Of a DNA stretch of 64,000 bases, positions 1-55,398 are shown piece after piece. The notes under the pieces were generated by a model, which was not told where the DNA came from, made no database searches, and saw only the letters and a list, made by a program, of their open reading frames with translations. Each line of letters begins with the position of its first letter. Positions within the stretch are counted from its first letter, which is position 1. The position numbers and the translations under genes are program-made. The DNA lies in assembly GCA_036245805.1 (NCBI GenBank), contig BTRK01000004.1:44480907-44544906 (forward strand), written 5' to 3'. Origin of the DNA: Pristionchus mayeri. Taxonomy: Eukaryota > Nematoda > Chromadorea > Rhabditida > Neodiplogasteridae.

Positions 1-3000
1 CTCTACAGTTAGATATATGATTCTCCGAACTCTTCCTTTATCATCTCTACTCCTGAACAGCTCGATGTTTATGTGTGTTGAGTAGTTCATATATGCACGT
101 ACCTGATACCAATCCACGACGTATACTCCCAAGATGGGATAAATCTCCGATAGCCAGTGACTAGAAATGGATGTTAGACTGTTTGGTTCTTCTGGCTTTT
201 TAAACCTCCTCCACATTTCGATAGCACAATGGAACGCGCGATGAGTCAGCCTGATCCCTTTAGGCTGCCCGGTTGTGCCAGAGGAGTAGTAGAGCAGGCA
301 CTCGGCATCAGCCGACACTGGAAAGGAAACGTCATCAATTTAGCATTCATAATTATATTCTCCGTGATTTATTATACAATGTAGATGTATGTGCATACAA
401 TTCACAAGTTCCTCGAATGGTTCGTGTCGAATCGTCTCCTCAAAATCGATCACTCCATTCGGCAGCGGATTCGCATAAGAACGGACGCAGATTATCGTCT
501 GATAGGGTTTGAGATTAGGTCTACCCTCTCTTAATTGCCTCTTCAACTGTTATGCACTACACTTTCGCTGTGTTATGTTATATCGTTGTGTAATCCCAAC
601 CTTGACTGACGGGCACGGCATTCGCCGCCTCGAGAACCATGCTTAGAAAATGCTCAGACACGACGATGACTGAGGAGGAAGAGTCGCGCAGCTGACAGGT
701 CGTTTCATCCAAAAACAAAAGCATTATTCTCAAGTCCCAGAACTCGCACAGACTCTTGGAGCAGTGTGGTTGTTCATAGTAATTGCATATATGTCAGTAC
801 TTTTGATCGCATGAAATACCGGTACTTACACAACTTGAACGCCGTACTGGCTCCTACCACTGAACCTCCCGCAGCCCATGTGCCGAGATGTAACACCGGC
901 CATCTAAGACAACATTTTTTTAACAATTCACATTAGCATATTGATAAATTCGATAGGCAATATTCAACTGAATGAATCTGTAAAGTGTACGACATACTCG
1001 ATCGAATTCGGGAGGGCAATAGAGACTCGATCGCCGGTTTTGAATCCACGTGAAGTGAGAAAGGCAGCGAAGGAGAGGGCCTGCAAGAATCACAACTGTG
1101 TACGCCAAACCAATTCATGAATATATTATTAATATCAGATGGTCGAATGTATTTGCATTGAAGCAAATCCACCGTGAAAGATTTCACTTGTAAGAGCTGA
1201 TATTCTTGTTGGTAGGTCAGCGCGCGCTCCTGATTATGTGATTCGATCTGGAATATACAGTATCGATCATAAGTATTCGCCCAAAATTTCGGAGCCCTAT
1301 AATTTTTGAACCGATTGCCCGATCAGTTTGAAATTTTAACTGTAGATAGGTAATTCATCGGGGAATGCGATGCAATTATAGGTAATTCATGTAAAGTGTT
1401 CGCTCTTGCATAGTGAAGACGTAACAACAACACACTTTTTCGAAATGGATTATTTCCTCGGAGAAATTTTTCGTGCTTACCGTACTTTCTGAGGATTGAG
1501 AAGTGCCGTAGGGCTATCCAGAAAACAATTTTCAAGTTGCTGCGACTTCGCACCAAGCTGCTGCAGCCGCTGCAAATTCGATGTTGCAAACTCATAACTT
1601 TGGTTCTAGGCAAGCTAGGAACTAGTGCAAAGAAGAAAAATAATCCTTGTTATGATCCTAGATGATCCTGAAAGTTTGGTATCGATCGCTCATTATTTGC
1701 CCTCAAGGCATACAAAAGTCACTTTTTCTGATGCCCCGACTTTGGCCGAGTACCGTTTCAATGCCGAATTTGCATAAAATGTGATTCCAGCATAGAAATG
1801 TGCAAAAACCATCGAACAATCGATTCCCAACTTTTGGTAGGGTTAGCTACACTTTCCAGACCGTGGCGTTCGATCTTAAGACGCGCGCTCCTCTCGCGAG
1901 TACATCATTTCCCTACACGGAGAGATAGTGGAGAGGGAGCGGTGTGAAGAGAGACGCGCTCATTCTGAGAGGAGCGCGCGTCTTAAGATCGAACGCCACG
2001 GTCTGTAGCTAACCCCACCAAAAGTTGGGAATCCATTCTTCAATGGTTTTTGCACATTTCTATGCTGGAATCACATTTTATGCAAATTCGGCATTGAAAC
2101 GGTACTCGGCCAAAGTCGGGGCATCAGAAAAAGTGACTTTTTTATGCCTTGAGGGCAAATGATGAGCGATCGATACCAAACTTTCAGGATCATCTAGGAT
2201 CATAACAAGGATTATTTTTCTTCTTTGCACTAGTTCCTAGCTTGCCTAGAACCAAAGTTATGAGTTTGCAACATCGAATTTGCAGCGGCTGCAGCAGCTT
2301 GGTGCGAAATCGCAGCAACTTGAAAATTGTTTTCTGGATAGCCCTATGGCACTTCTCAACCCTCAGAAAGTACGGTAAGCACGAAAAATTTCTCCGAGGA
2401 AATAATCCATTTCGAAAAAGTGTGTTGTTGTTACGTCTTCACTATGCAAGAGCGAACACTTTACATGAATTACCTATAATTGCATCGCATTCCCCGATGA
2501 ATTACCTATCTACAGTTAAAATTTCAAACTGATCGGGCAATCGGTTCAAAAATTATAGGGCTCCGAAATTTTGGGCAAATACTTATGATCGATACTGTAT
2601 TCAATAAGGTTGAAAAAAAATGTTCAGCCCTTGTCCGTATTCTTTCATAGATTATAAAGAGCGAGATGGCATGTGATTTTGAGAGAGTCAGGCGAAAAAA
2701 GCGTTACCATAGCTCGCTTATGAGGGAACTTGGCAGCGTGCACTTTCAGAGATCGGACAAGTCGTCTCACGAGTGTCTCATCGGGAATCTCTAGTGGACG
2801 GCATGGCGATTTTGTGATTTCCTGAAAATTACAATTTTTCTGTAGATGTATTTTCATTTCTCTGTTCGGAAATAATCTCCAGTAACCTAATAAAGCATAC
2901 GAACTCGAAATTGCCGTCAACACGGTCAGCTTATCGCCGTAACATCATACGATATTTTAAACATTAAAATGTTATAAATAACACTCACATTATCTAGCGT

Positions 3001-3054
3001 AGATCTCCATGTTTCCAAGTACGAAGCGTTCTGCGAAACGGGCAATCGAGCCAT
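1..3054 (-). CDS. Acyl-CoA synthetase-like adenylate-forming enzyme, N-terminal part (runs off the window)
   Basis: Exons read by eye (high to low): 3054-2989 (ATG at 3054), 2821-2708, 1247-1188, 1080-998, 903-830, 691-611, 546-399, 317-103. The translation carries the P-loop-like AMP-binding motif YYSSGTTGQPKG, preceded by RGFKTGDRVSIALPNSIEW and by QLRDSSSSVIVV-type sequence, all typical of the ANL superfamily that activates carboxylates as acyl-AMP and loads them onto CoA. The exact substrate cannot be told. The catalytic C-terminal half lies outside the window. Most junctions have consensus sites and consistent phase. The 830/691 junction does not: the strong donor GTAAGT leaves phase 1 while the next exon needs phase 0, so either a micro-exon or a 1-bp lesion is present. 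Intron 2 holds a 1.34 kb palindrome. Family assignment is firm, substrate unknown, intactness uncertain. Confidence 0.8.
1258..2597. mobile_element. 1.34 kb foldback element with Tc1-like ends (CAGT.., TA duplication)
   Basis: The first ~640 bp recur as the reverse complement of the last ~640 bp with scattered mismatches; the loop lies near 1900-1970. Ends are CAGTATCGATCATAAGT and its complement, flanked by TA on both sides (1256-1257, 2598-2599), as expected for Tc1/mariner targets. The two mirrored 96-codon ORFs lie in the arms and show no known domain. It sits in intron 2 of the acyl-CoA synthetase gene, so the pre-mRNA would contain a very long hairpin. Likely a non-autonomous element. 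Confidence 0.85.
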
Positions 3055-4997: not shown

Positions 4998-5065
4998 CTG
5001 AACAAATGTGCTACTTATTTTTTCCTAATATATTTGATGGCAATATAATATGTACTGTACATTAA

Positions 5066-6359
5066 GAGACCCTCCACCAGAGAACGTAGCTGGTCCACGG
5101 ATGGCCAAAAATTCGATATTTCCCATGTTTTTTTCTGAAGTGTAGGCCGCGAGTCTAGAGGTCGATGTTGAAAAAGTTTCGGACACCCCCCACTTTTGGG
5201 GTCGAAAAATTGACGCAATATGAAAAAGATATGCTCGAATAAACTATTTTTTGGAGGGTTTTATGAATATTTCAAAATTTTACATTGTTTGGGGTGTTTT
5301 CATTGTGATTTTCGGAATCTACATCATAAATTACGTATATGGAGAAATTTTCAGAATTTTATAAATGGACCATATCTTCGAAATTATGTCCAGAACTTCC
5401 CAAATCAAGGCAATTTCTCGAATACGCCGTTGCGCAACGTGGTTTTTTGTTATTTGCGCCCATAGGGCCTCTACATATCTTAAAATAGTTTTAAATATCT
5501 CACACATGAGTGTAATTATATGCTTGAATGTTCAGTTCTTCCTGAAAAACAAAATTCCAAAATCTCAAAATTCGGATTTTTTTGCTCGAATTTTTTTTCG
5601 AAAAAATCATAACATTTTTAATTCGCATTTTCATGATGTATAGTGTCGAAAATCGTTACCTACGGGTCAAAATACCCTATAAAATATGCAACCAGCATAA
5701 TTTGGCGAAGTCGACTTTTTTCATGCCACAGACTGGGCTGAAAAAAATGAAATTTTAAAGTTCCTCGAATTTTTAGTTTTAACTTTTCCAAAATGAAGAT
5801 AATGTTCATATGTGTCCTTTTTGAGTATTTAAGGATCGGTAGAGGCCTCTTTGGGCGCAATTAACGACATTGCGTAACGACGTATTCGAGAAATTGCCTT
5901 GATTTGGTAAGTTTTGGACATAATTTCGAAGATATGGTCCATTTTTAAAATGCTGAAAATTTCACCATATACGTAATTTACGATGTAGATTCCGAAAATC
6001 ACAATGAAAACACCCCAAAAATTGTAAAATTTTGAAATATTCATAAAACCCTCCAAAAAATTGTTTATTCGAGCATATCTTTTTCATATTGCGTTATTTT
6101 GCGCTCTAATAGCGAAAAACGTTTTCTACAAGGGAACATGCGTCAGGAAATGTATATTGCATATAATTCCGAAGAAGTCAATTTTTCGACCCCAAAAGTG
6201 GGGGGTGTCCGAAACTTTTTCAAAATCGACCCCTAGACTTAGTTATTGCTCCCGTCAATCAGCACTCGGGGCCTACACTACATAAAAGAAGTATGGGAAT
6301 TATCGCATTTTTGGCCATCCGTGGACCCTGTTTTTTTACGTTCTCTCGTGAAGGGTCTC
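5066..6359. mobile_element. 1.29 kb palindromic element with TTAA target duplication
   Basis: Arms of ~600 bp mirror each other (for example the stretch reading CCCCAAAAGTGGGGGGTGTC near 6190 and its complement near 5190). Ends GAGACCCT.../...AGGGTCTC are bounded by TTAA at 5062-5065 and 6360-6363. TTAA duplication is the habit of piggyBac-type transposases, but the ends do not begin with CCC in the classical way, so the superfamily is open. No transposase is encoded. It separates the two halves of the F-box array and probably landed in an intron. Confidence 0.8.
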
Positions 6360-6377
6360 TTAAATTTATTTCACCAC

Positions 6378-9087
6378 CTGGATTTGCGACCACAACTTGC
6401 TTAACACTTAGCTTTAGATTTGTTACGCTACTATTTCGGATTGTTTGCAATAAAATCTTTCTGAAAATAATGGAATATCCATATTTTTTTTGCAAAATAT
6501 ACGCTGCATCCTCCGTTAGTGCACATATGGAAATGCGTAGACTATCGATTCGAGTTGCTGAGAGTTGTTTCGAAAGAGGAGTCCCTTGCGGGATATCGGT
6601 TTCCGAATAGTCCAAACCGAATAGAATGTCAACTGAAACATAAACAAAAACTTACCGGATAATGGTCACTCATAGGGATCTATTATGATCTTGGAATACC
6701 ATGAAATGCATATTGTGCCACGTACCTTTATCGGAATTTTGCATTTGATCAACACAAATATTAAGATTTTCCACCTCACGATCTTCCAGTATTTGCATCA
6801 GAACTTTGCTGAAAACGTGTTTGAAGTTGTTCTAATTGTATGGAAAAACGAACGCGAGATCTTCTGTAAGATCCCGAATCGAAAGTTGTGTTTTCTCGAT
6901 CCTTGATCCATTTAGAAGGGTGAATAACATATCCATTGCCGTTGCAGCAGATTGTAAATCGATCCTATATTTCTGCAGTGGATAATCGTTTCGAGATTTA
7001 TTGAATATAACATTATACAATGTAATGTATCAGGTATGCAATGAGCTGAGATGTTTATTTATTTAGCGGCTTAGCAAACCGGAAAACTACCCGCAACGCA
7101 AATGCAAATTGTCCAAAAAGATAAGTCTGTAATATCATATCTACCTGAATTCGCAATTGTGATAATTGTCTTCCCAACACTCATGTAAATCACAGGCATC
7201 ACGAGTCAGTGGAGCTGTGTGGGAAAAATTTCCAACTTTTATTTTTTTACTTTTAAAAATTTCCAATCTGGGTCTCAGGTCTCAGAGCCGTCATTTAGGA
7301 ATTTTCCGGTCTTAGATCCGGCTCTACCATAAATCGGCTCTCAGATGAGTTAGAGAGATGGCTTTGGGCTCAAAAAACGCGGAAAAATATAAGGAACAAC
7401 TTTTCTGTTTTGACTCAAGCTGTACAATAAAAAATGGAAATGCTGTGATAGAAAAACCGCAAATGAGGGGAAAAATGAGTGATTTGAGATATTTCTTGAA
7501 TAGGCGATGCAATTTCTGCTGAAAAACTCAGAGATCGACAATGTTCGAAAAATCGATTTTCACAACCTCCATTTTTTCCAAGTTTGTGCATTTATAAGTA
7601 AGCACATTGAAACGTACATCCGTGATAAATAATTATTATATTTAATAGGCTCCGACTAGTGTTCAAATATGGTACAATTGATAGCTATAGAGTTGCGAAT
7701 CGTTTGTTTTCTTCACTCGAATATGTGTATCCGGCAGTGCAAAAACTAATCAAAATTTGCTTTCCGCTGAAATATTGCGGCTACCGACCCGCATTGAACA
7801 TCTAAAATCTTATTTGGAATATATTAGACAGAAAAAAGCTTCCATAACATCAGTATCCCTTCTTTTGAAATATTCGATTTTTTTCTAAACGTGAAATCTT
7901 CGATATTTTTAGAAACGTATATTGAGTACATTTATTGGCATTTTCATACTAAGGGGATATGGTCGTGATTTTAGATGCTCAACGCGGGTCGGTAACCGCA
8001 ATATTTCAGCGGAAAGCAAATTTTGATTAGTTTTTGCACTGCCGGATATGCATATTCGAGTGAAGAAAACAAACGATTCGAAACTCTTTAGCTATCAATT
8101 CTATATATATTTGAACACTAGTCGGAGCCTATTAAAAATAATAATTATTTATCACGGATGTACGTTTCAATGTGCTTACTTATAAATGCATTTCCAGTTT
8201 TTACTGTACCGCTTGAGTCAAAACAGAAAAGTTGTTCCTTATATTTTTCCGCGTTTTTTGAAGCCATCTCTATAGCTCATCTAAGTGCCGATTTATGGTA
8301 GAGCCGGATCTGAGACCGGAAAATTCCGAAATGACGGCTCTGAGACCTGAGACCCAGATTTTTTGGTAAATTGGTCCTAGTATATGCTTCCACCATAATA
8401 TGATCGAAATCAAAAAATAAAAGTTGGAAATTGTTCCCAGTGGGGGTATTTTTCACCCACTGACTCGTGATACGAGTGATATACATATATTACGGGGAAC
8501 GAACAGACAATGACCAAAATTCAACTATGATATAATATTTACTCACCGTCGAGTACATCAGTCCCTTGCTCTTGATGCAGAGTAGCATGGAGTCTTGAGG
8601 ATGACTTATTATCAATCTTAGAGGAATGAGTTTGTCACTAATATCAAATTCATTCTGAAATTTAATGAAAAGTTTGGCCAGTGCCTCCGGGTTTTCCTGA
8701 AATTTTGATTTTTTTTCTTTCACCCATTACTTAAGCACGTTGTTAGCAGCATCGTCAACTGTTGTGATAGTAATCTCCTCGATAATCCCCTTCATATGCG
8801 TTTTCAGTACATACTCGTCTGCGCGAATTTTGAGAGTATGTGATGTCTGGAATAATCCAACTCATAATCAAGCAGATCCATTGGGGTTTTGGAAGCCAGC
8901 TCGGCAAATTTCGAATTTTCCGATGGTACTCGATGTATCCTGATTAGAGGAGTGATATAATGACATTTACCTTTCTCAGGTTGTATATTGACTTTGGTGT
9001 GTATTCGATTATCATCCACACAAGGTCCGCTGGCAAAACCTCGAATTGCGCCAAGAACTCGGCTTCTTCTAGCTCCGTAGTCACCAT
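6378..9087 (-). CDS. F-box family gene with duplicated exon 4-5 pair and no exons 6-8
   Basis: Exon 1 (9087-8971, 39 codons) encodes an F-box (LPADLVWMIIEYTPKSIYNLRK) and ends at GTAAAT. Further exons: ~8939-8842 (DLLDYELDYSRHHILSKF), ~8663-8553 (LIPLRLIISHPQDSMLLCIK), 6972-6854 (LLNGSRIEKTQLSIRDLTED) and 6808-6726 (83 bp, LMQILEDREVENLNICVDQM). A second exon 4/5 pair follows at 6632-6503 and 6460-6378 (also 83 bp). Introns keep family phases. A 1.27 kb palindrome occupies the intron between 8550 and ~7200. Exon 2 does not join exon 1 in phase with the obvious acceptor at 8940, so its start is uncertain. The gene stops where the TTAA palindrome begins; exons 6-8 may once have been those at 4262-3475. 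F-box proteins recruit substrates to SCF ubiquitin ligases. Confidence 0.6.
7200..8469. mobile_element. 1.27 kb palindromic element in an F-box intron
   Basis: Arms from CACGAGTCAGTGG (7200) to its complement (ending 8469), matching over ~600 bp with mismatches (for example AATATTGCGGCTACCGACCC near 7780 and its complement near 8005); loop about 7830-7950. AT lies on both sides, which may be target duplication or part of the ends. No transposase seen. Confidence 0.75.
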
Positions 9088-12470: not shown

Positions 12471-12474
12471 TGGT

Positions 12475-21169: not shown

Positions 21170-22230
21170 ATATCACGCCCCTCACGTAAGAATCGACTCA
21201 AAATGACACTAGCTTGGCATTGAGGCAAAATTCGAAATTGAGATAAACACATTTTCAGGATCCACTGGACCCAACTTAGATCTCTCGGCCTTGAATAATG
21301 TGTGGGAACATTCTCCGCCGAGTTGCTGCACCGGTCGGACCGAGCACTCCAACTTTGAGGATTATTTTCTACCCTTCAATGAAAACATACTGAAAACTTT
21401 TCTTCTAGTGGTCCGGCTAATTTTTGATGCTCTATCGCCCTATCTTGACCGTTTTCGATCTTTGATCTTTAAAATTGCTCCATATTCAATGACGTATAGC
21501 TTGAACACTGCTACAAAATCACCGGATTTTTTGCTCCATCACATATAGCTTGAAAAGAGGATTCGAACAAGTATCTTGTGCTCGCATATCGAGGGAACCT
21601 AAGGGGTGTTTTGCTCTTAAAACGCTTCGGGAAGATTTGAAGTTATTTTTAATCAGCTAATCGACGTGTCATTTTGCCCTTTCGCGAACAACATTAATTA
21701 ATTTTGTGATATGTTTCAGGTTACTTCGAAAAGTTTACTAGACGACTATTCAATGCATTTCAATGGAACCTGAAACATATCACAAAATTAATTATTTTTT
21801 TCGCGATAAGTTCCCTCGATATGCTACTTGTTCGATACTTGTTCGAATCCTCTTTTCAAGGTCTATGTGATGGAGCAAAAAAATCCGGTAATTTTGTAGC
21901 AGTGTTCAAGCTATACGTCGTTGAATATGGAGCAATTTCAAAGATCAAAGATCGAAAACGGTCATGATAGGGTGATAGAGCATCAAAAATTAGCCGGACC
22001 ACTAGAAGAAAAGTTTTCAGTATATTTTCATTGAAGGGTAGAAAATAAGCCTCAACGTTGGAGTGTTCGGTCCGACCGGTGCAGCAACTCGGCGGAGAAT
22101 GTTCCCACACACTATTCAAGGCCGAGGGATCTTAGTTGGGTTCAGTGGACCCTGAAAATGTGTTTATCTCAATTTCCAATTTTGCCTCAATGCCAAGAAT
22201 GGTTCGATTCTTAGGTGAGAGGCGTGATAT
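21170..22230. mobile_element. 1.06 kb palindromic element in F-box intron 5
   Basis: Ends ATATCACGCCCCTCAC and complement (AGGTGAGAGGCGTGATAT). Arms match over ~490 bp, including the stretch GCTGCACCGGTCGGACCGAG and its mirror near 22070. Centre at ~21680-21790. The mirrored ORFs in the arms are not proteins of known type. A lone end of the same family lies at ~42083-42101. Confidence 0.8.
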
Positions 22231-22773
22231 GTTGTCGCCCTCTCAAATTAGTCAAATAGAACGATATAAATTGACGAGATTAAAGTCAAAACGACTGGCA
22301 AAATAAATTTCAGGAGGAATTCTTATCAACTTAGCCATGTAATTTTATCAAATCCGAATTCGTGATATATCATCTGAGATATCTTACTATACAAATTACG
22401 TTTTTGGAGTTCTCAACGATGATTGGGTAGAACACAGCGTGTCAAAGTGTGTTTGTCGCGGCGCCGAGCCGATCTTGAAACATAACATTTTTGGCTGAAA
22501 TGAACGATTATAATTTGAATCAACGTTTGTGAAAGATATATCAATGCTTAGCAACAAAAAATAAACAAATATTTCTAATGAAATGCATCCCTTAGGATTG
22601 TGACCAGGATGCCTCCATATCATTTTTTGATAATTTTGATAAACTTTAAAATTTGTTACATGAATTTTTCAAATTTGTATGCATAAATCGAAAAAGTTGA
22701 GAATGCACAGCAATAGGGAACCCCACATATGCAGAACTTTTTCATATCTACGTGAAGAGCTCTACAAGTTGTA

Positions 22774-25686
22774 CAGGGTGGCTGATAAATATTGCGTCCA
22801 CCTTTTGAATAATATCTCGCAAACAAATAAAATGATAATTATCATATTGCGTTTAAATATATATCAGTACCGTGCAAAACAATTACTAGACGCAGGCTTC
22901 ATGGTATCGACTGGCCTCTTAGCATGGAGGCAAAAAGTAGTCTACATTTTTACTCAATGCGCCGTTTACATTTTTCGATATATAAAATGATCTCAATGTC
23001 CATCGAAATTGCAACCGAGGTGAATATGAAGAGTAACCCTTCCACTAAGTGATAATCTTGTCAAATGCGATATGAGAGGAATCGTGAGAGAATCGACCAC
23101 CCCGCGGCGGTAGGAAAAATGTGTTCTATCTGAAAAAAAATTCAAGTATAAGTATTTCAAATGATGCTCTTTCAAACTGCGTCGTCAGAATTTTGATATC
23201 GGTCGTCATCTTCGAGATTCAGAAGGCCAAATTTGGTACTATCACTTTTTGACATTCAAATCGGGGCCACTTAAATGATCATAACTTCGTTTAAAATGAA
23301 GATAGAAGATCGTTCTTTTTTAGAAAGAAAGCTACCACCATGCTCTACAACATTATCTAGACGACATCATTCCTGGTCAGCATCATGGTGCAGGGCGGTC
23401 GGGCGGACCAAAAATGACGTATCTTTGGAAATCGGAAAAAGTTTTGGGTTATCATGTTTAAGTTTAAGTTCATACATGGAACTAATTTCACGCCAAAAAT
23501 TAGGGCAATCTGGGTATAGACAAAAAAAAAGGTCTCACTTTTGTGCGGCGACACCAAAATGAGTTCTGGAAAAGAGTACTTCCGTATCTTCAATTGGCCT
23601 GATTTGGGCTAAAAATCATTCAAAAACATCCAACAACATTCTAAGTATCTACCCCCCATGTTGTAGCTCTTCCATTGGTCATAAATGGCTACATGACCGA
23701 AATTTTGAAATTCCATATTTTGACCAATTTCAACAAGCGGGAAGAGCCCAAATGCACTAAATGGGTTTCAAATAATGTAAATACATCCCTAGAAACAGCT
23801 CAAAGAAAAAGGGCTACTGAAAAGAGGAAATTTCACCTGAAGAATACAAGGAAACACACAAAACTGTGACTCCGGTAAAAATAGGCATAGAGACTCGGCT
23901 TTTGATTAAAATGTAGAGCACGATGAGTTAAACATTTCATCTGTTGAAAGTGAGTCTCTATCTTTACGTTGACGCGAGCTACGGAGCCTGGAAGCTGGCC
24001 AGAAACGACGGGAAACGGGCCGGGGGGAGCGCTAAATAGAGAGGAGGGAGAGGGAGGTCAGGCGGCGAGAGCTCCAGACGGTTAGAGCACGCTGAAATGT
24101 TTAACTCATCGTGCTCTACATTTTTAATCAAAAGCCGAGTCTCTATGCCTATTTTTACCGGAGTCACAGTTTTGCGTGTTTCCTTGTATTCTTCAGGTGA
24201 CATTTCCTCTTTTCAGTAGCCCTTTTTCTTTGAGCTGTTTCGAGGGATGTATTTACATTATTTGAATCCCATTTAATGCATTTGGGCCCATCCCACTTGT
24301 TGAAATTGGTCAAAATATGGAATTCCAAAATTTCGGTCATGTGACCATTTTTGACCAATGGAAGAGCTACAACATGGGGGTAGATACTTAGAATGTTGTT
24401 TTGGATGTTTTTGAATGATTTTGAGCCCAAATCAGGCCAATTGAAGATACGGAAGTACTCTTTTCCAGAACTCATTTTGGTGTCGCCGCACAAAAGTGAG
24501 ACCTTTTTTTTTGTCTATACCCAGATTGCCCTAATTTTTGGCGTGAAATTAGTTCCATGTATGAACTTAAACTTAAACATGATAATCCAAAACGTTTTTC
24601 CGATTTCCAAAGATACGTCATTTTTGGTCCGCCCTACCGCCCTGCACCATGATGCAGACCAGGAATGATGACGTCTAGATAAGGTTGTAGAGCATGGTGG
24701 TTGCTTTCTTTCTAAAAAAAGAACGACCTTCTATCTTCATTTTAAACGAAGTTATGATCATTTAAGTGGCCCTTCTGAATCTGGAAGATGACGACCGATA
24801 TCAAAATTCTGACGACGCAGTTTGAAACAGCATCATTTGAAATACTTATACTTGAATTTGTTGCCAGATAGGACACATTTTTTTCCTACCGCCGCCCACC
24901 CCCCTCAAATGGTCGATTCTCTCGCGATTCCTCTCATATAGGGTCTCTGAAAACAGAGAGAGATAAATTTGATGACTTTCAGTCACGCATATGCAAAAAA
25001 CTCTCTTTTCGGAATTTCTTATTTTGAATGTTGATACCGCCGTATAATGTTGCATAGCTATTAACAGAGTCGAGTTATGAAATATTGTTGCATCAAATTG
25101 AATGTAAACGTTGAATTAATGGTAGAAGTAGGCACCTCAAAATATCGCTAAAAGCGGCGCTTCGCAGCATTTCGCAACTTATTCTGGTTCCGAATCAATA
25201 TGCCCAAGCAAATGGAATGCATTTTCACAATAAAGAATGATGGAGTATCATGCATAAAATAGAACAATTCCAATAGCTAATGTGTTCGAAGAATGCGGCT
25301 TCGAAATATTATTATTTTTTATAGAGCGCCTTTCATAATAAATAATTTTAAAGCATTTCTGAGAAAGTTCCGAGGCTCATAATATAATTGATCACATATT
25401 TATACGTGTAAATGGTTGTTCTTATTAGGAATAAATGGATGAGTCCTGTATCTAATTCCTTGCTGTAAGGCGGCATAAACTATCAGATACGTTTATGTGC
25501 CCAGAAAAGTCCAAAACAAAATACAGAAGTGATAACTCTTGAAATACTTGAACAATCCAGATCATATTTATAGGCTAATAACTTTTGTCCCTTACCAACA
25601 TAGTTACCAAATTTGATGCAATGGTGCCTACAGAGAATGGAGATTGAGAAACAAGAAAAGTGGCGCAATATTTATCAGCCACCCTG
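22774..25686. mobile_element. Nested 2.9 kb element with Tc/mariner-like ends
   Basis: Ends CAGGGTGGCTGATAAATATT and its near-complement, flanked by TA (22772-22773 and 25687-25688). Inserted in the left arm of the outer palindrome. No complete transposase is seen inside. Its middle is occupied by a further palindrome. Confidence 0.75.
23060..24945. repeat. Inner palindrome, third nesting level
   Basis: Left arm from ATATGAGAGGAATCGTGAGA (~23069) mirrors the right arm ending CGATTCCTCTCATAT (~24940). Arms ~900 bp with small indels, centre ~24030, where GGGAGAGGGAGGTCAGG-type purine-rich DNA forms the loop. May be an independent element that jumped into the Tc-like one. Confidence 0.7.
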
Positions 25687-26430
25687 TAGAACTTCGATTT
25701 TTTCAAAAATGTTGAAATATTTTGAGAAATTTGCGATTTAAGCCTTATTTTTAAAATTTCTCAAAATATTTCAACATTTTTGAAAAAAATCGAAGTTCTA
25801 CAACTTGTAGAGCTCTTCACGTAGATATGAAAAAGTTGTGCATATGTAGGGTTCCCTATTGCTGTGATTTCTAAACTTTTTCGATTTATACATCGACATG
25901 GGAAAAATGAGTTAAACTACATTTAAATTTAACAAAAATTGTCCAGAATAATAGGGAATCATCGTGGGTCATTTCATGAGAGTTATGCATTTTCAGATTG
26001 GCATATTTAAATTTCAAAGATAAGTTATGATACAGCATTCACCGATTTTTTGCTCAAACATTCACCTCTCGTATCGATAAAAATGTTATGTTTCAAGATT
26101 GGCCAAGCGCCGCTCCAAACAAAGTAAATCTAGATTTTGGCACGCTGTGTAGAACTCATATTGGAGATGTTCAATAACAAACTCGACACTCTCGCCATTT
26201 ACGCGGGCGAAAACTGGTCGTTCCTCACTCCACAATGCGCTGACTTATTGATTGAGGTCTGAATTCATTTGAAAACACATATTTCTAAAATATTTCAGAG
26301 GTTACCAAATCTCGGAAAGAAAGTGTGGATTCAGTCGTTCCGTGTTCGTTATCCGACTAAACCCGATTATACCGTTAATGAGCACCGAATCAAATGTGAG
26401 TATTATGGTTATCTTTTTTGGACAATTTCG

Positions 26431-31071: not shown

Positions 31072-31073
31072 AC

Positions 31074-31926: not shown

Positions 31927-32927
31927 CACTCAATTTCAACTCGTTCGATTTGTGGAACGCCGTGCTAAGTCTGAAGTGAGTTTGAGTGTTTCCATAAACG
32001 AAGAGTACTGACATTATGCATCTGGAAAGGAAATTGTTGGGTTACAAATATCTCAACTAAAAAAATAACGTGCGTATTCCTTGCAGTGCTATAAATTCAA
32101 TTATGAATCTATGGATAAACACGCAATGATGCTTGTGCATCTGAGAAATTGCATTGGAGATCAAATCGACCGTTTCCAAATTGAAAATGATGAATTGCCC
32201 GGACTCTTCCCTCTTCCTATCGATGCGCTCGAACAAATTATCGAGGGAGTCAAATTCAGGAAATTACATATATCTCAAGCAATCGTCAATGACGATGTGG
32301 CGTACGTTTTTATTTAATTTTGTTTATATATCCATCAAATTGCATTCAAATTACAACATTAACTATCAGCTCGCTGTTGGAAAAACACGTTTTGCCAAGC
32401 CTCGCAAGTGTTTCCTTAGCTGAGTACCGACTCAATATGTCTGATCCAAGTAAGAGGAATCTGAGGTTGCAATCCCGTATTCATTTAAGGGAATTTTCTG
32501 CTTAATATTTCATCACATGCCCGAGACGTACAAATGGATGTAAATTCACGTCATGGAAAGAGATTTGACGACATTGAGTATACCGAGCTCATTATCGAGA
32601 TGTTCTCGAATAAAATGGACAAACTGACAACACTTGACGTTTGGAACTCATCTGTGCTCCCTGCAAGTTGTATTGACCTACTTAGAGAGGTGAGCATAAT
32701 TTCCCAATTCAGGATCAATTTTTTTTCAGAAACTGCCAAACCTTGGAAAGAAATTGTGGTTTCTAACTCAGTCCTTGATCTATGATCTTGATTATACTAT
32801 AAATGAGCATCGTGTTAGAGGTGAACACGGATTCTTGAACATATTGAAATACAATGAAAATAACAATTCTTTAGCCGAAGATAACTATGTCAGTATCAAG
32901 CATATATCTATAGAAAACGAGGAATAA
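31927..32927 (+). pseudogene. Tandem duplicate of the F-box 3' half (part of exon 3 to exon 8)
   Basis: Begins mid exon 3 (TCACTCAATTTCAACTCG) and repeats 30071 onward at a constant offset of 1856 bp with only a handful of substitutions. Exons 4-8 remain open (exon 7 here reads LPNLGKKLW, closer to the family consensus). Lacks the F-box, so it cannot act as a normal SCF receptor. Confidence 0.85.
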
Positions 32928-34064
32928 ACATATGAGAGACTATCTGAGAGGATTCACATACACCCGTACAGCAAAAAATAAAATTCCTTGAAAATAAGTC
33001 CCTAGGGTTACTTTTTCATGTAGATAAATAAAATCGACCTTACAAAGCCGTATGTCTGACCCCTCATTTTCTGTACTGCGCCGAAGTGGGCGGTCGGATT
33101 TTGAAATTTTTTTTGGAGCGTCCAAACTCCATAACCATATAGTTATTCTGAAATATCTCGACGAGATAAGCATTTTTCCTGTTGGAAGTGAAGGGCCAGC
33201 TCATCAGTGAAAAAAGTTACGGACATTTGAATTTTTAAAATCGCCGACCTGAAAAATTTTTTCCCAGCTGGGGGTTTTTGAACATTTCCATTCGATTCCT
33301 CGTGAAAAGTTACCCCAGGAACCGAATTTTCAGCAAGATCCGAATTGCAACAAGGGGTCATTTGAATCCTCGAATATGGCCGATCCATTGATTTTCGCGC
33401 CAAATTGAGTGACCACTTTTTTGAAATAGTGAGGTTTGGAGCTCTACTGATGTCCAAACGATAGAATATGGTCGATATATAATTCTTAGTTTTTTTTACG
33501 CCCTTTTAAATCATAATTCAGTCCTTTGAATATTTTGTTTGTTTTTATAAGTGATTTCATGGGTGAAAATTGCGAATTTTCGAAAATCTAGAATTGCCAA
33601 AGATACAAAGGGACAAAATATTAAACTAACATTACAAATGGATGCAAATATACTTATTTGCTCCCCAGTGTTCATTTATGGAGGTTTAGCATTTCATTAT
33701 TCTCATGTAACATCACATCAATCTAGAGATCGCAATGAAATTTACGATTGGTCTGATAAATTAACGATCTTAATTGATCTGAGAGATCTCTGATTTGCGC
33801 AACTCAAACGCCGAGAAATGCAAATTTTGTGAGCAAATTAGTTCATCGAAATATGTTCAAAGGAAGAAGAGTCTCGAAACAGGAACGGTATATGCTCAGC
33901 GAAAGTTCAGCGAACGAGTCTTCCACAAGTACTGATTACCCCCCGACCGTCTACACAAATATACTACGCATCTTGGTCTCACATACCTCTAGTGTCCTTT
34001 AGGAATCAATGATTTGTGTTACATGTATACTATTGTATGGGGAGTTAGAAATACAATTGTTGTA

Positions 34065-34100
34065 TTAGGTTGGTGCAAAAGTTTCTTTCTGTTTTATGCA
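34065..34100 (+). repeat. Lone mariner-type terminal repeat
   Basis: TTAGGTTGGTGCAAAAGTTT preceded by TA is a typical mariner end. No matching opposite end is found in the window. Confidence 0.55.
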
Positions 34101-35076
34101 CGAACATTTATGCATCTCGCTTTCCGTTATATCCTTCCCCAATCCAATCCCGCAGCTTCGTAATCCCACCATCTTCCGTTCCATCTTCCTGTGTGTTGAA
34201 CTTATTTGGACGCAAAATTTGCATTTCTCGGCGTAGGTATGCGCAAATCTGACATCACTTTCGTAAATTTCTTTGCGGTCTCCTAGGCTTAGATGGCTGT
34301 GATAAGACCCCCCCCCCAACCTCCATAAATGAACACTGGGGAGCAAATAAGTATATTTGCATCCATTTGTAATGTTAGTTTAATATTTTGTCCCTTTGTA
34401 TCTTTGGCAATTCTAGATTTTCGAAAATTCGCAATTTTCACCCATGAAATCACTTATAAAAACAAACAAAATATTCAAAGGACTGAATTATGATTTAAAA
34501 GGGCGTAAAAACAACTAAGAATTATATATCGACCATATTCTATCGTTTGGACATCAGTAGAGCTCCAAACCTCACTATTTCAAAAAAGTGGTCACTCAAT
34601 TTGGCGCGAAAATCAATGGATCGGCCATATTCGAGGATTCAAATGACCCCTTGTTGCAATTCGGATCTTGCTGAAAATTCGGTTCCTGGGGTAACTTTTC
34701 ACGAGGAATCGAATGGAAATGTTCAAAAACCCCCAGCTGGGAAAAAATTTTTCAGGTCGGCGATTTTAAAAATTCAAATGTCCGTAACTTTTTTCACTGA
34801 TGAGCTGGCCCTTCACTTCCAACAGGAAAAATGCTTATCTCGTCGAGATATTTCAGAATAACTATATGGTTATGGAGTTTGGACGCTCCAAAAAAAATTT
34901 CAAAATCCGACCGCCCACTTCGGCGCAGTACAGAAAATGAGGGGTCAGACATACGGCTTTGTAAGGTCGATTTTATTTATCTACATGAAAAAGTAACCCT
35001 AGGGACTTATTTTCAAGGAATTTTATTTTTTGCTGTACGGGTGTATGTGAATCCTCTCAGATAGTCTCTCATATGT

Positions 35077-35519
35077 TTATTCCTCGTTTTCTATAGATAT
35101 ATGCTTGATACTGACATAGTTATCTTCGGCTAAAGAATTGTTATTTTCATTGTATTTCAATATGTTCAAGAATCCGTGTTCACCTCTAACACGATGCTCA
35201 TTTATAGTATAATCAAGATCATAGATCAAGGACTGAGTTAGAAACCACAATTTCTTTCCAAGGTTTGGCAGTTTCTGAAAAAAAATTGATCCTGAATTGG
35301 GAAATTATGCTCACCTCTCTAAGTAGGTCAATACAACTTGCAGGGAGCACAGATGAGTTCCAAACGTCAAGTGTTGTCAGTTTGTCCATTTTATTCGAGA
35401 ACATCTCGATAATGAGCTCGGTATACTCAATGTCGTCAAATCTCTTTCCATGACGTGAATTTACATCCATTTGTACGTCTCGGGCATGTGATGAAATATT
35501 AAGCAGAAAATTCCCTTAA
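35077..35519 (-). pseudogene. Inverted F-box fragment, exons 6-8
   Basis: Minus-strand copy of the exons at ~32520-32927 (MFSNKMDKLTTLDVWNSS, LPNLGKKLW, SIKHIS). Exon 6 is cut at its start by the junction with the Helitron. Confidence 0.8.
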
Positions 35520-35522
35520 GAG

Positions 35523-38500
35523 CCTGATCTCAAGGGTCAACCCATTTGCCCAGGCGTACAAAATGATGGCCGAGGTGGAAGAGAATGAGGAGAGAAAAGC
35601 AGTCGAAGAAGGTCGGACGGCCGCTCCCGTCCGAATGATCTTTGATCCCACGACATCTAAGGATCCCCGTAGGTACAACGCGCCTCAAGCCAACGAGGTT
35701 GCCGTTGTCTACGTGGGTGAAGACGACGATGTGCCTGCCACTCGATCTCTGGCAGTGCATCCCCGAGGGGGAGGACTCACGACGATTCGAGATATCGACA
35801 AGATCTGCGATCCCCTCACATATCCCGTGTTCTTCCCCACGGGAAAGGACGGGTGGCACCCTGAACTGGAGAAGAAGCCATCGGAAAGGAAGAGGACTCG
35901 CATCACCCAGAAGGAGTATTACAGCTACCTTCTGATGGTGCGAGAAGGGCAATTCAAATCCATCCACCATGGTAGAGCCCTCTTCCAGCAATTCGCTGTT
36001 GACTCCTGGGTCAAGGTGAGTACTTCGTCGCTTAGAATTCTATAATTTTGACATTCCATGAATTTTAGATCGAACAAAATCGACTCAACTATTTCCGCTC
36101 TAATCAAAATCAGCTTCGAACCGCCTCCTACCGATCAGTACAGGTGAGAATAATGAAAATAATTTCCAAAAAGGAATTTTATGGAGTTATCAGTCTTTGA
36201 GTGGCGTGCTTTGTTATTTCAGGACTACCTTGCCGGAGATTCTGATGTTCCAGGAAAGAGGACCATCCTCCCTTCGACCCATCCGGGTAGTCCTCGAGCC
36301 ATGACACAGGATTTCCAAGACGCGATGGCCATCGTCTCCAAGTACGGCAAGCCGGACATCTTCTTTACCTTCACATGCAACCCCGCATGTCAGGAGATTA
36401 CCGAGAATCTCGAACCCGGTCAGACTGCCTCTGATCGACCTGATCTAATCGCAAGGGTCTTCAAACTAAAGGTGAGTCCAATATTTGCTGTCTCTTCTTA
36501 ATTGACTATCCTTATTTTGCGTGTCTTAGGTCGACAGAGTGTTCGACGATCTGCTCCATCGTCACAAGCTCGGCCGCGTCGTCGCATACATCGCAGTATT
36601 TGAGTGGCAGAAGAGAGGCCTCCCTCACGTTCACATTCTCCTCATCATGAGTGAGGACACAAAGCCGCGCACTCCCGAGGACGTCGACAGGTTAGTCCAA
36701 GCGGAGATTCCCGACCCCGAGACGGACCCGGAATTGTACCACATCGTCACCACGAACATGCTCCATCGACATTGCGGTGCACTCAATCCAGATTCACCCT
36801 GTATGAGAGATGGACAATGCTCCAAACACTTCCCCAAAGAGTTCCGGGACAGTACAAATCTCGACGTCGACGGATACCCCCAGTACCGTAGGAGGGATGA
36901 CGGGAGGGTCGTCGAGTACGGAGGGCACAATCTCGACAACCGGCACATTGTGCCCTACAATGTTTACTTCCTGCTGATGTACATTGCGCATGCCAACGTC
37001 GAAATCTGCGCGTTCATCGAAGCAGTGAAGTATCTCTTCAAGTACGTCTACAAAGGACCCGATCGCGCCTATCTCAGCATCTTCCGTACCGGACAGAGGG
37101 ACGGGGACGGAATCATCGTCGATGAGATCCGCGCCCATCTCGATGCCCGATATGTGTGCGCCCCAGAGGCAATTCATCACATTTTCGGATTCAAAAACGA
37201 AATGAAGTCGGACACAGTTTACTGCTTGGCAGTTCACGAACCGAACTTCCAAGAGGTCACTTTCGATCCCACCGAGCCCCATGAGCAACTACGGGCTAAG
37301 GCTGCTAAGGAGACTACCCTAACAGCTTGGTTCAAGCTGAACAAGAAGAGTGCGGAGACTGTCCAGAGTGGCGTCCTCCCTCCCTCCTTCATCGATTCCC
37401 GACAATTCTTCTACTTCGACCTCCCCACTCGCTTCACTTTCACCAAGAAGGATGGCCAATGGAATGTGCGCAAGAGCGGAACCAGACAGATCGGACGAAT
37501 GTACACTGTCCCTCCCCACGACACCGAGCGATACAACCTCCGTATCCTCATCCTCAACGTCAAGGGACCGATTTCATTCGAGGATCTCCGCACTGTTCCG
37601 GATTCCAATGGAGTGCCAGTGAAGCACCACTTTCGGAGAAGCAGCAAAGGCTCGCGGCCTTCTGAAGGACGACAGTGAGTACCTCCAGTCCCTGAAGGAA
37701 TAGGCTGGCCACTCCGTCCCCGCTGCTCTCCGATCTGCCTTCACTGCCATTCTTCTCTTCAACGAGGTCCACGACCCACTGGCACTCTGGGAAGCAATGA
37801 AGAGGGATCTCAGTGAGGACTACCGTCATTTGGGAGCAGGAGAAGAGGAGGCTGAGGCACTCGCCTACTTCGACATTGCCGATCGATTCCAAAGGTAAAA
37901 CTACTTATTCCTTACTATACATGAACAAGTACGAAATTACCTCTTTCAGGGCAGGAAACGATTTCTCCAGATTTGTTCCTGAGCCAGCCGTCCGCCCTCC
38001 ACTCAGAAATCTCCACCTAGCCAATCCCGCTTATTGTGCTGCAGAAGGCGAGAGACTCTACGCGACTCTCAACCCTCAGCAACAAGCTGCCGCTGACGCG
38101 ATTCTGGGAGTGTTGGAGGATGCATCTCTTCCCCGTCTCTTTCACATTGACGGACCGGGTGGAAGCGGTAAGACGTACCTCTACACCACACTCTACAACA
38201 TCTTCGTCGGAAGGGGACTGAAGGTGAGATTTCTGCAAGTCCACATTCTCAGTTCAATAAAACACTGCAAACATTTAGGTTGTCTGCACAGCATGGACAG
38301 GAATCGCAGCAAATCTTCTCCCTGGCGGCCGAACCTCCGCTTCTCTATTCAAGCTCAACAGCAGTAATCGATGCGAATCATCAAACCATCGAAGACAAGA
38401 GCAAGACGCCAGGGAACTCGCCGAGAATGACGTCATCATCTGGGATGAATCGTCGATGATCCCTTAGGTAAGATTCCCCTATTTATTGTTCGTTTACAGT

Positions 38501-39511
38501 ATACTACCTCCTATTTTTTTCCAGGCGGCGCTGAACACAGCCGATGCTGTTCTCAGGGACATCACCCAGATCGATCGACCATTTGGAGGGAAACTGATCA
38601 TTCTCGGTGGAGACTTCCGTCAGATTCTCCCCGTGGTGGAGAAGGGATCGAGAGCCGATCAAGTCGATGCGTGCATCAAGAGATCCCCTCTTTAGAGTGA
38701 ATTCCGATCCCTCACTCTCATCTCGAACATGAGAGTCACTTCGGGAGATACCCAATGGATCGAGTTCCTCCTCAAGGTGGGCGACGGATCGGCCAACGAT
38801 GCCGAGTCCAAGGTGACTCTCCCCCTCTCCAACATGTGCGTTGGAAACATCGTCATGAGAGTGTTCGGAGAAGTAATCGACCCCTCCACTGACCTCTGCG
38901 ACAAGGTCATTTTGACCCCAAAAAATGTGGATGTGACCCGTCTGAATGACGATGTACACGAGCGGATGCTTGGCGAAGAGAGGATCTATCTCTCGCGAGA
39001 TGAGGTCGTATCTGATGAACCATCCGATCACACCACATACCCCACTGAATTCCTCAACAAAGTGTCACCCTCTACTCTTCCTCCCCACATTCTCAAGCTG
39101 AAGAAGGGCTCTGTTGTTATGCTGCAGAGGAATCTCGACGTTTCTGCCGGCCTATGTAATGGTACCCGACTTATCGTAAAACATCTAGGTCCCCGCTCCC
39201 TCGGTTGTCGATTCGCATGCGGCGATCGAAGGGGAGATTTCGCTGTAATTCCCCGTATCGACTGTTATTATGATAAGAATCTATCCTTCAAAATTAGACG
39301 TACCCAATTCCCCGTTCGCCATTCGTATGCCTTTTCTATTAACAAGTCCCAAGGCCAGTCCTTCTCTAACATTGGCCTCTGGATCCCTTCAGAAGTGTTC
39401 TCTCACGGTCAATTGTATGTAGCTCTTTCCCGAGTTCGTTCAAAGGAAGGCCTAATTGTGCAGGCTGCTTCTAATCGACTGATCAACATTGTATTTGACG
39501 AAGTTCTCTGA
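35523..39511 (+). pseudogene. Helitron Rep/PIF1-like helicase, truncated and broken
   Basis: Exons: 35523-36015, 36069-36143, 36223-36471, 36530-37894, 37950-38223, 38279-38467, 38525-39511. The HUH nuclease motif GLPHVHILLI (~36627-36656) and the catalytic-tyrosine block AVKYLFKYVYKG (~37023-37058) mark the rolling-circle Rep domain. GPGGSGKT (~38151-38174), IIWDESS and the C-terminal INKSQGQS with LYVALSRVR mark a PIF1 family (SF1) helicase. Lesions: N-terminal truncation, a frame change near 37628, TAG at ~37708, TAG at the end of exon 6 (38465-38467) and TAG at 38693-38695 where relatives usually have Trp. The rest is well preserved, so inactivation looks recent. The enzyme would nick, unwind and copy Helitron DNA in the nucleus. 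Confidence 0.9.
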
Positions 39512-53504: not shown

Positions 53505-54123
53505 CGCTTGATTGTTTCGATACGAATCCTGATAAATTGCACATAATTTCGCAAAAATGTGTGAAAGCATCGCTATTTTTTCAAAGCGGGAGCGAAATGC
53601 GAGTAGATGATGTGTGCGTATGATACAATGTGGGGAAGAGGCTTACAGATACTCTCGCTGCTCTTTTTCCTTGCACATTTTCTCTGCTTTTCTGACCAAT
53701 GATAGAGAGTGTGAATAGAAGATGTGTATTTGCACACACTAAGCCCATGATGAATCGAACAATCGTCTGACTCTCTTCAGTTTGCACGCTCTCTCGTCTC
53801 TCTGACCGGCGAGAGAGCGTGCAAACTGAAGAGAGTCAGATCATTGCTCGATGAATCAGTGATAAGCTTGGAATCGATGCCATGCGCAACTGCCCATCTG
53901 CACAAAGATAACTGATATATTGGTGTTGATCACTGTTGACTTTCAGATCCTCGACGATTAGCCAAAGTCAAAGAAAGCAAATATTCAGTCAATTGCAGCT
54001 GAGAAACAACCCTCTCTCTCCATATTTGTCATGTGAATACTTAATCTGAAAACACTTTTACTCTTTCCGTGGTTGATTTTGTATCGTTCAACGAGTTTGC
54101 ATTGCTGCAGAGGTTGCGATGAA
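53505..54123. other. Intergenic, carrying a hairpin MITE
   Basis: Apart from the hairpin at 53750-53858 nothing is recognisable. Confidence 0.4.
53750..53858. repeat. Short hairpin MITE
   Basis: CTGACTCTCTTCAGTTTGCA pairs with its complement; the loop TCTGACCGGCGAGAG matches the copies at 3737 and 42174. Upstream side of the diverged F-box gene. Confidence 0.8.
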
Positions 54124-55398
54124 ATATGAGAGACTATCTGAGAGAATCGACGAATTTCGCCCATGACCCGTACAACGAAAAATATATTTCCAACTTGAAT
54201 ACCTGCCTGGGGTCAACTTTTCACGTAGATCACGAAAATCGACCTTAGAGAGCCGTATCTCTGACCCCTCATTCTCTGTGGTACGCCGAATTGGGCGGTC
54301 GGTTTTTGAAACTTTTGAACGGCTCGTCCAAACTCTACACATTTATAGTTATTCTGAAAGATCTCGACGAGATAATCATTTATCCTGTTGGGAGTGAAGG
54401 GCTAGCTCATCTGTGAAAAAAGTTACAGTCATTTGAATTCTCAAAATTGTCACCCTGAAAAATTTTTCAAAAAAGGGGGGAAATAAACAATTGCATTAGA
54501 TTCCTCATGCAAAAGTACACCAGTGTACCAAAATTGAAAGAAAAACTCATCATGGCATCCAGTCAAATGGTGGACCAAAGACCTCGGACTTGAACGATTT
54601 TGAACGAACAAATCGATTTTTTGAAGACATATTTTTTAGATTGACGTATAGTGAACTGAGATGTGGAAATTCGGATTCTACGAGTGAAAACACGCCAGAA
54701 AATCTTTTTCTCGTAAAATTCTGAGATATTAAGTTTTTCGACCTCGAAAATGATAAAAATTCCCCTAAATTCCCCACAATTGGAAAACTTGATGTCGAAA
54801 AACTTGATATCTCAGAATTTTACGAGAAAAAGATTTTCTGGCGTGTTTTCACTCGTATAATCCGAATTTCCACATCTCAGTTCACTATACGTCAATCTAA
54901 AAAATATGTCTTCAAAAAATCGATTTGTTCGTTCAAAATCGTTCAAGTCCGAGGTCTTTGGTCGACCATTTGACTGGATGCCATGACGAGTTTTTCTTTC
55001 AAACTTGGTACACTGGTGTACTTTTGCATGAGGAATCTAATGCAATTGTTTATTTCCCCCTTTTTTGAAAAATTTTTCAGGGTGACAATTTTGAGAATTC
55101 AAATGACTGTAACTTTTTTCACAGATGAGCTAGCCCTTCACTCCCAACAGGAAAAATGCTTATCTCGTCAAGATCTTTCAGAATAACTATAAATGTGTAG
55201 AGTTTGGATGAGCCGTTCAAAAGTTTCAAAAACCGACCGCCCACTTCGGCGTACCACAGAGAATGAGGGGTCAGAGATACGGCTCTCTAAGGTCGATTTT
55301 CGTGATCTACGTGAAAAGTTGACCTCAGGCAGGTATTCAAGTTGGAAATCTATTTTTCGTTGTACTGGTGTATGCCAATCCTCTCAGATCTCTCATAT
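54124..55398. mobile_element. Complete 1.27 kb palindrome, ATATGAGAGACT family
   Basis: Ends ATATGAGAGACTATCTGAGA and its near-complement; arms ~630 bp, very similar to each other; centre ~54770 (AATTCCCCACAATTGG). Shares arm sequence with 31074-31926 and 32930-35074, so it represents the full-length form of that repeat. No transposase. Confidence 0.85.

What the first reader, a model, noticed from the sequence alone, without database searches (positions are those of the whole stretch)
1258..55398. Population of kilobase-scale foldback palindromes in and around F-box genes
At least seven large palindromes (1258-2597, 5066-6359, 7200-8469, 21170-22230, 22433-26149 with 23060-24945 inside, 32482-35520, 54124-55398) fill roughly a fifth of the window. 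They have different ends and target marks (TA, TTAA, TAGAA), so several transposase systems seem to have produced or mobilised almost fully palindromic cargo. Three lie in introns of otherwise gene-like sequence, and transcripts through them would form very long double-stranded RNA.
Basis: partly seen in the sequence, partly recalled or inferred. Interest (0 to 1): 0.9.

Follow-up and report, generated by a model that had tools for sequence, protein, structure and literature searches.

The report
Palindromic transposons with self-copying arms
The window holds several ordinary hairpin-shaped jumping-gene relics, but their two mirror-image halves keep copying each other, and in one of them that copying appears to have run on into a neighbouring gene and turned the gene's end into a long perfect hairpin.

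Summary
The palindromes are real (about 20% of the window). Six belong to well-dispersed families of nearly palindromic DNA transposons; a seventh (22433-26149) showed one other copy.

The eighth, 32485-35519, is not a TTAA transposon. It is a TA-type element (32931-35073) sitting 3 nt after the stop codon of a local gene, and its mirror symmetry continues ~445 nt into that gene's last two exons. The 1202-nt arms differ at one site. On the left the "TTAA" is, by comparison with paralogues, a splice acceptor; on the right it abuts the inside of a Helitron frame that runs on unbroken in 3 of 3 other copies read.

In two families, arms of one element are more alike than arms of different copies (0 of 20,000 permutations in each). 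In the TGAGAGA superfamily the interiors are homogenised, yet 25 of 26 two-ended elements keep one A-type and one B-type tip. The single B/B element is 32485-35519, and it alone has mirrored flanks (100% against 19-36% in 22 A/B elements).

Best reading: arms recombine within elements, and here one-sided fold-back synthesis ran through the tip into the gene. Long-TIR recombination has precedent (Galileo); outward capture of host exons I did not meet in nine topical searches. Reads and small RNAs were not available.

The parts
1255..2600 (.). E1: palindromic transposon, TA ends (TACAGTATCGATC...), arms ~600 nt, 98% alike
   Evidence: 45 matches of its left arm on the six large contigs, many in inverted pairs
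5062..6363 (.). E2: palindromic transposon with TTAA at both ends (TTAAGAGACCC...)
   Evidence: 80 matches, many starting at query base 1
7183..8486 (.). E3: palindromic transposon, TA-type ends, degenerate
   Evidence: 82 matches
21170..22230 (.). E4: palindromic transposon, TA-type ends (TATCACGCC...), arms 90% alike
   Evidence: 49 matches
22433..26149 (.). E6: older palindromic element (arms 73% alike) with TAGAA at 22428-22432 and 26150-26154, interrupting an exon of the local gene family; holds part of a young repeat (from about 22770) and E5
   Evidence: one other copy seen, C5:43873009-43873779
23070..24939 (.). E5: palindromic transposon nested in E6, TA-type ends (TATGAGAGGAATC...)
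   Evidence: 48 matches
32485..35519 (.). E7: compound palindrome, arms 1202 nt with 1 mismatch; its outer part has no close match away from this locus
32931..35073 (.). TA-type palindromic transposon inside E7; both tips are B type
   Evidence: relatives at C4:16399195-16401286 and C2:13127960-13131987
32485..32930 (+). Last two exons of the local gene, ending with stop codon TAA at 32925-32927; the 'TTAA' is read as the splice acceptor ATTTAAG|G
   Evidence: profile of three window paralogues matches 32492-32692, E 4.6e-7; comparison of the preceding intron with paralogues
35074..35519 (-). Inverted copy of the same gene end on the far side of the transposon
   Evidence: 445 nt identical; profile match 35312-35512 minus strand
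35521..39511 (+). 5'-truncated Helitron (Helitron_like_N and Pif1 2B domains above cut-off); junction with E7 at 35519-35521, at most one extra or shared base
   Evidence: three other copies run on upstream without a break
30071..33768 (+). Recent tandem duplication, units 30071-31912 and 31926-33768, 99.6% alike, carrying the gene end and the left arm of E7 twice
54124..55398 (.). E8: palindromic transposon, TA-type ends, A tip on the left and B tip on the right, spacer 45 nt

Best explanation
The palindromes are DNA transposons, apparently without genes of their own, whose two arms form nearly the whole element. SHOWN: they are dispersed; in the two families tested arms within an element are more alike than arms of different copies; in the TGAGAGA superfamily the arm interiors are homogenised while the outermost ~42 nt stay of two different types (A and B); the order of tips and spacer differs between copies. 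INFERRED: the arms recombine inside the element. Two-sided gene conversion equalises the interior but stops where homology stops, at the tips, and crossovers flip the middle. In E7 a break was repaired from one side only: the broken right side folded back on the left arm (or a replicating end switched to it), copied the arm outward through the B tip and on through ~445 nt of the neighbouring gene, and the end was then joined into a Helitron. That made a 1202-nt inverted repeat, part transposon and part host gene, with two B tips. Whether it makes hairpin RNA that silences the gene is open.
For: Arm-arm divergence 4.1% against 10.2% for random mates in E1 (15 elements, 0 of 20,000 permutations as low); 4.7% against 8.9% in E8 (12 elements, 0 of 20,000). 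Two-against-two site patterns over 105 element pairs in E1: 3838 within-element, 28 same-side, 28 cross-side; over 66 pairs in E8: 1843, 159, 121. In pairs such as L040/L047 the same-side sites are columns 21-31 and 656 and the within-element sites 238-613. Tips: 25 of 26 two-ended elements A/B, one B/B, which is E7; of 50 exact B tips in the genome the only convergent pair under 5 kb is E7. The 100 nt outside the tips mirror each other at 100% in E7 and at 19-36% in 22 of 22 A/B elements whose flanks lay in the loci. A tip left of the spacer in 7 of 10 and right in 3 of 10 E8 copies whose spacer and tips could both be read. E7: 1 mismatch in 1202 nt; gene exons in the outer arm; no close copy of the outer arm elsewhere; Helitron cut inside its frame, with no TTAA at that point in the three other copies read.
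Against: Only top-scoring copies were sampled. In E8, 8 of 66 pairs are side-dominant; one is a segmental duplication (L045/L059: 14 same-side, 0 within), others are separate insertions (L047/L049/L051) that kept side differences while moving, in the closest pairs also at columns 51-97 and 568-623, so homogenisation is episodic. Only 13 of 24 E8 arms have their own mate as nearest neighbour, against 23 of 30 in E1. Three of 15 E1 elements do not have sister arms in the tree. Several loci have other inverted repeats standing around an element at a distance (L053, L028, L068, L055, L037); I read them as enclosing elements but did not test them. A single E7 cannot show how often outward copying happens. 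The two-sided against one-sided repair step is inference.
Confidence: 0.78

Rival explanations
1. One reading: a TTAA-inserting transposon whose palindromic cargo includes gene sequence.
For: TTAA stands at both ends of 32485-35519; one old match of 68% (C6:11636909) starts exactly at its first base even when the query is longer, though an exon start would do the same.
Against: The left TTAA is the splice acceptor of an exon whose preceding intron lines up with window paralogues; the right end abuts a Helitron interior with no TTAA at that point in three other copies; no second close copy; left flank is gene, right flank Helitron. One old match (C6:50830573) crosses the left boundary by 51 nt, but that adds only about 4 bits.
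Confidence: 0.03
2. Inverted gene duplication first, transposon later: a spacerless inverted repeat of the gene end existed and a TA element landed at its exact centre.
For: The target would be a symmetrical ...CATATG... centre, which TA elements could use.
Against: A normal insertion would bring A and B tips; E7 is the only B/B of 26. The transposon arms are as identical as the gene arms, while a relative has arms 94% alike (L015/L016).
Confidence: 0.06
3. Assembly or library artefact: the inverted gene copy in E7 is a fold-back chimaera made in amplification or sequencing.
For: Nearly perfect arms; no reads to check.
Against: The inverted copy stops after 446 nt and abuts a Helitron; a third copy of the arm (30629-31830) differs from the other two at four and five sites; the other palindromes have diverged arms and cannot be such artefacts.
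Confidence: 0.1
4. Arms look alike because each element was newly made palindromic by fold-back from one end, not by later conversion between arms.
For: Also gives arms more alike than copies.
Against: It would make both tips the same type; 25 of 26 two-ended elements keep an A and a B tip, and E8 pairs change from side-specific tips to homogenised interiors. Not excluded for E1, whose tips are alike.
Confidence: 0.12
5. Cruciform or hairpin mismatch correction: extruded arms are repaired against each other without a break.
For: Explains homogenised interiors and untouched tips.
Against: Cannot copy gene sequence beyond the tip as in E7, nor flip the spacer.
Confidence: 0.2

Closest known systems
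Galileo of Drosophila (P superfamily, long TIRs)
   Same: Authors report 98-100% identity between TIRs of one copy, TIRs lengthened by copying further sequence into the other TIR, and propose break repair from a TIR as template (PMC3573991, passages; PMC4168063, section 10).
   Different: There the recruited sequence is internal to the element or a TE inserted in it; here the copied tract leaves the element and takes host-gene exons. Target duplication 7-8 bp there (PMC4168063 abstract); TA-type here. No transposase was identified here.
Fold-back inverted duplications (human, yeast)
   Same: Inverted duplication with an unduplicated spacer, often at inverted homology, explained by resection, intrastrand pairing and fill-in (PMC3907307, passages; PMC7467729, abstract start).
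   Different: E7 is about 3 kb, interstitial, with a transposon palindrome as the inverted repeat.
Tm1 foldback family of root-knot nematodes
   Same: Inverted-repeat transposon family in nematodes, with nested copies (PMC3169594, passages).
   Different: 9-bp target duplications and composite TIRs; the elements here have TA-type ends.
Palindromic non-autonomous transposons of C. elegans (PAL-type entries in Repbase; recalled, no call)
   Same: Nearly palindromic elements with TA or TTAA targets in a nematode.
   Different: I could not compare sequences; no repeat library was available.
Gene-derived hairpin RNA loci and Mu killer
   Same: Hairpin RNA from inverted duplication (abstract starts of PMC10317233 and PMC3440606).
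   Different: No RNA evidence here.

Membership tests
Long-TIR / foldback non-autonomous DNA transposon | Long inverted arms making up most of the element | tested here: met
Long-TIR / foldback non-autonomous DNA transposon | Many dispersed copies with shared ends | tested here: met
   E1-E5, E8 and the inner part of E7; E6 one other copy; not met for the outer 445 nt of E7
Long-TIR / foldback non-autonomous DNA transposon | No coding capacity | tested here: inconclusive
   Four reading frames, from E1, E5, E6 and E7, had no Pfam hit at its cut-off; frames of the other elements were not scanned
Tc1/mariner-type (TA target) | TA duplication at insertion | tested here: inconclusive
   TA at both ends of most E1 and E8 copies listed, but TA is part of the conserved mirror sequence and no empty site was compared
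Tc1/mariner-type (TA target) | Matching transposase | not tested
   Frames of a 4-kb relative were listed but not scanned against profiles, and the genome was not searched for transposases
TTAA-target transposon (piggyBac-like) | TTAA duplication, for E7 | tested here: not met
TTAA-target transposon (piggyBac-like) | TTAA ends, for E2 | tested here: inconclusive
   TTAA at both ends and copies starting there; no empty site
Fold-back inverted duplication | Inverted copy, unduplicated spacer, inverted repeat at the turn | tested here: met
   E7:
Hairpin-RNA (siRNA) locus | Transcribed hairpin with small RNAs | not testable with these tools
   No RNA data

The most novel reading that the evidence does not exclude
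Palindromic transposons are recurrent generators of gene-derived hairpins: one-sided copying between arms repeatedly runs past the tip into host exons, giving birth to loci that make siRNA against the parent gene, while the mismatched A/B tips normally act as the stop that confines arm recombination to the element.
Probability: 0.15. Interest if true: 0.85.

Novelty: new variant of a known kind. Interest (0 to 1): 0.58.

Why it matters
Why long transposon arms stay alike is hard to test. This superfamily carries its own markers: two tip types that conversion does not erase, and a spacer whose order shows crossovers. That makes conversion, crossover and one-sided copying separable by sequence alone. 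E7 shows a route by which a transposon can turn the end of a neighbouring gene into a long, nearly perfect inverted repeat, the raw material for hairpin RNA.

Tried and rejected
TTAA transposon for E7: rejected. Autonomous partner: the 4-kb relative at C2:13.13 Mb was read as a candidate; its listed frames did not look like a transposase to me (not profile-scanned), and part of it is another palindrome (L013 2884-3753). Preference of palindromes for the centres of other palindromes: suggested by E7 and E6/E5; E7 turned out otherwise, and reading the arm spacings by eye I saw one clear central insertion among about 30 arm pairs; not pursued. It is not refuted: some elements stand inside other inverted repeats (L053, L028). 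Order of tandem duplication and inverted copy in E7: five variable sites (four private to L1, one to L2, none to R) do not decide it. L012 (C4:44429370, A tip, 93% like E7) as the lost right arm: too diverged; rejected. E6 as a spliced-out new intron: read by eye, the GT and AG at its junctions would cost 4 nt of frame; not supported. Species: best named Helitron relatives include several nematodes, and mir-8364 is named in a Pristionchus pacificus paper (passages), so a nematode is likely; a local-gene search gave nothing at E 0.01.

Rows dropped: E1, 21 loci examined, 15 had two arms of at least 450 nt and were used. E8, 30 loci examined; after removing repeat views and loci without two such arms 12 were used. 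Tips: 60 loci scanned (L009-L068), 56 held a tip; 67 distinct tips were found by pattern, the window E8 right tip was added by hand because its variant missed the pattern, 26 pairs formed, 16 tips unpaired and left out. Two A/B pairs (C2:30345364 and C2:42213826) share flanks and are one duplicated insertion, and C2:30340111-30344399 may join two neighbouring elements; without these, 23 A/B pairs; other shared flanks were not checked. Flank mirror test: 22 distinct A/B elements and E7; three A/B pairs (window E8 and two spanning loci) were not in it. Spacer orientation: two of 12 E8 copies (L063, L067) left out as ambiguous; L045 and L059 are the duplicated insertion. In the alignment the tip of one arm was trimmed in L039 and L063.
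Full report
What is there. The window is a stretch of contig C4 (bases 44480907-44544906) of a 290.8-Mb genome in 73 contigs; the six contigs seen most are 40-57 Mb. The best named relatives of its Helitron include several nematodes, so a nematode is likely; the species is not identified. Inverted-repeat search and pairwise alignment confirm all seven palindromes and the nested one; they sum to 13,032 bases, 20.4% of the window.

Most are ordinary transposons. One arm of each was searched in the own genome. E1 gave 45 matches, E8 79, E5 48, E2 80, E3 82, E4 49, many as inverted pairs, spread over the large contigs. First-look candidates for these six ran from 165 to 3244 and only the best 40 were scored, so these are lower bounds. 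E6's own arm showed one other copy in a search filled by another repeat. Four element frames (from E1, E5, E6, E7) had no Pfam hit at its cut-off; the rest were not scanned. E6 carries a 5-nt TAGAA duplication and interrupts an exon of the local gene family, so it is not in an intron.

E7 is different. Its arms are 1202 nt with one mismatch. Positions 446-2590 of E7 match a dispersed family of TA elements. Its outer 445 nt do not: of 15 candidates, all scored, only the three copies at this locus match at 99-100%, and the rest are old matches of 68-90%, mostly short. A profile from three window paralogues matches this outer part as a whole exon, 32492-32692, and its mirror copy 35312-35512, each at E 4.6e-7. 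The bases in front line up with the intron that precedes this exon in a paralogue (GTAAGAG ... AG), so the apparent TTAA target is read as a splice acceptor. The stop codon is at 32925-32927 and the transposon starts at 32931. On the right, the mirror copy ends at 35519 and Helitron sequence begins at 35521. Three other copies of that Helitron, of 39 other matches found, were read and run on upstream through this point without a break and without TTAA there. E7 is therefore a TA transposon at the end of a gene, plus an inverted copy of the gene end, abutting a truncated Helitron with at most one extra or shared base. The left half also took part in a recent 1.85-kb tandem duplication, 99.6% alike.

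Arms evolve in concert. Arms were taken from 15 two-armed E1 copies of 21 loci and 12 distinct two-armed E8 copies from 30 loci, oriented by spacer. In E1 mean arm-arm divergence is 4.1%, against 10.7% between copies on the same side and 10.2% for random mates, with 0 of 20,000 permutations as low. Two-against-two sites: 3838 unite the arms of an element, 28 unite sides, 28 cross; 105 of 105 pairs are within-dominant. The E1 tree has ten of 15 elements with sister arms, two unresolved, three not. In E8, 4.7% against 8.9%, 0 of 20,000; sites 1843, 159, 121; 58 of 66 pairs within-dominant and 8 side-dominant. The pairs are not independent of one another.

Tips stay different. In the E8 copies whose tips are in the alignment (10 of 12) the first ~42 nt of the two arms are of two types, while the interior is much more alike. 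In pairs such as L040/L047 the side-specific sites fall at columns 21-31 and 656 and the element-specific sites at 238-613. Across the TGAGAGA superfamily 25 of 26 two-ended elements have one A and one B tip; the exception, B/B, is E7. Loci were brought in by an A-type or a B-type arm, but the type of the mate was not selected. Of 50 exact B tips in the genome the only convergent pair under 5 kb is E7; a partner with a mutated tip would be missed there. As a control, the 100 nt outside the two tips were compared in mirror: 100% in E7, 19-36% in 22 of 22 A/B elements. The A tip is left of the spacer in 7 of 10 and right in 3 of 10 E8 copies that could be read, which points to crossovers between arms. 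E1 has no such tip asymmetry.

Mechanism. Two-sided recombination between arms needs homology on both sides, so it equalises the interior and cannot rewrite a tip beyond which nothing is shared. One-sided fold-back synthesis has no such limit: it copies the tip and whatever lies beyond. E7 shows both marks, a second B tip and mirrored host sequence. In E1 and E8 copies the mirror symmetry ended within about 5 nt of the element ends, and within 7 nt in the related loci L020-L033; some loci have separate inverted repeats farther out, which I read as enclosing elements and did not test. The observed patterns are shown; the repair pathway is inferred. The duplicated insertion L045/L059 shows no conversion since its duplication (14 same-side sites, 0 within), and L047/L049/L051 moved while keeping side differences, so homogenisation is episodic and not tied to every move.

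Known work. Galileo papers report alike TIRs in one copy, recruitment of internal sequence into TIRs and repair from a TIR as template (PMC3573991, passages; PMC4168063, section 10). Fold-back inverted duplications with an unduplicated spacer are established (PMC3907307, passages). Tm1 is a foldback family in root-knot nematodes with 9-bp target duplications (PMC3169594, passages). In nine topical searches, judged from listings and abstract starts, I saw no report of arm copying running outward from a palindromic transposon into a host gene, nor of conserved unlike tips on homogenised arms; most subscription journals are not in the library. Verdict: real, mostly ordinary elements, with a well-marked case of arm recombination and one informative accident.

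Noticed in passing
window 53748-53858: A 111-nt near-perfect hairpin that matches Rfam mir-8364 on both strands (81 and 73 bits) and folds at -80.8 kcal/mol, z -13.3; looks like a miniature palindromic element rather than an ordinary microRNA gene.
   Followed up: partly
window 22770-23060: Part of a repeat with 38 other listed places at 97-99% identity (capped list), hence recently active, lying between the E6 left arm and E5; if E5 is inserted in it, E5 moved recently although its arms differ by 10%.
   Followed up: partly
E5 family, query window 23070-23939: In several copies one arm matches only from query base 72-80 onward (7 of 48 rows), which suggests that this family too has two tip types.
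   Followed up: no
L053 274-445 and 2769-2940; L028 176-587 and 2231-2626: Inverted repeats (94% and 89% alike) standing around an E8-type element and a neighbouring palindrome: nested palindromes, or a further kind of mirrored flank; not tested.
   Followed up: no
window 17404-18667 and 19775-21044: A 1.27-kb direct duplication, 95.6% alike, next to E4.
   Followed up: no
window 26529-26974: 16-nt tandem repeat array (ATACTTTCCTGGTCCC) present in both orientations.
   Followed up: no
window 4062, 9750, 15658, 22376/26149, 30633, 32492, 42874, 57304: Copies of one fast-evolving gene family; the F-box label rests on a sub-threshold Pfam hit elsewhere in the window, and a protein search with the 15631-16143 frame found no relatives at E 0.01.
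   Followed up: partly
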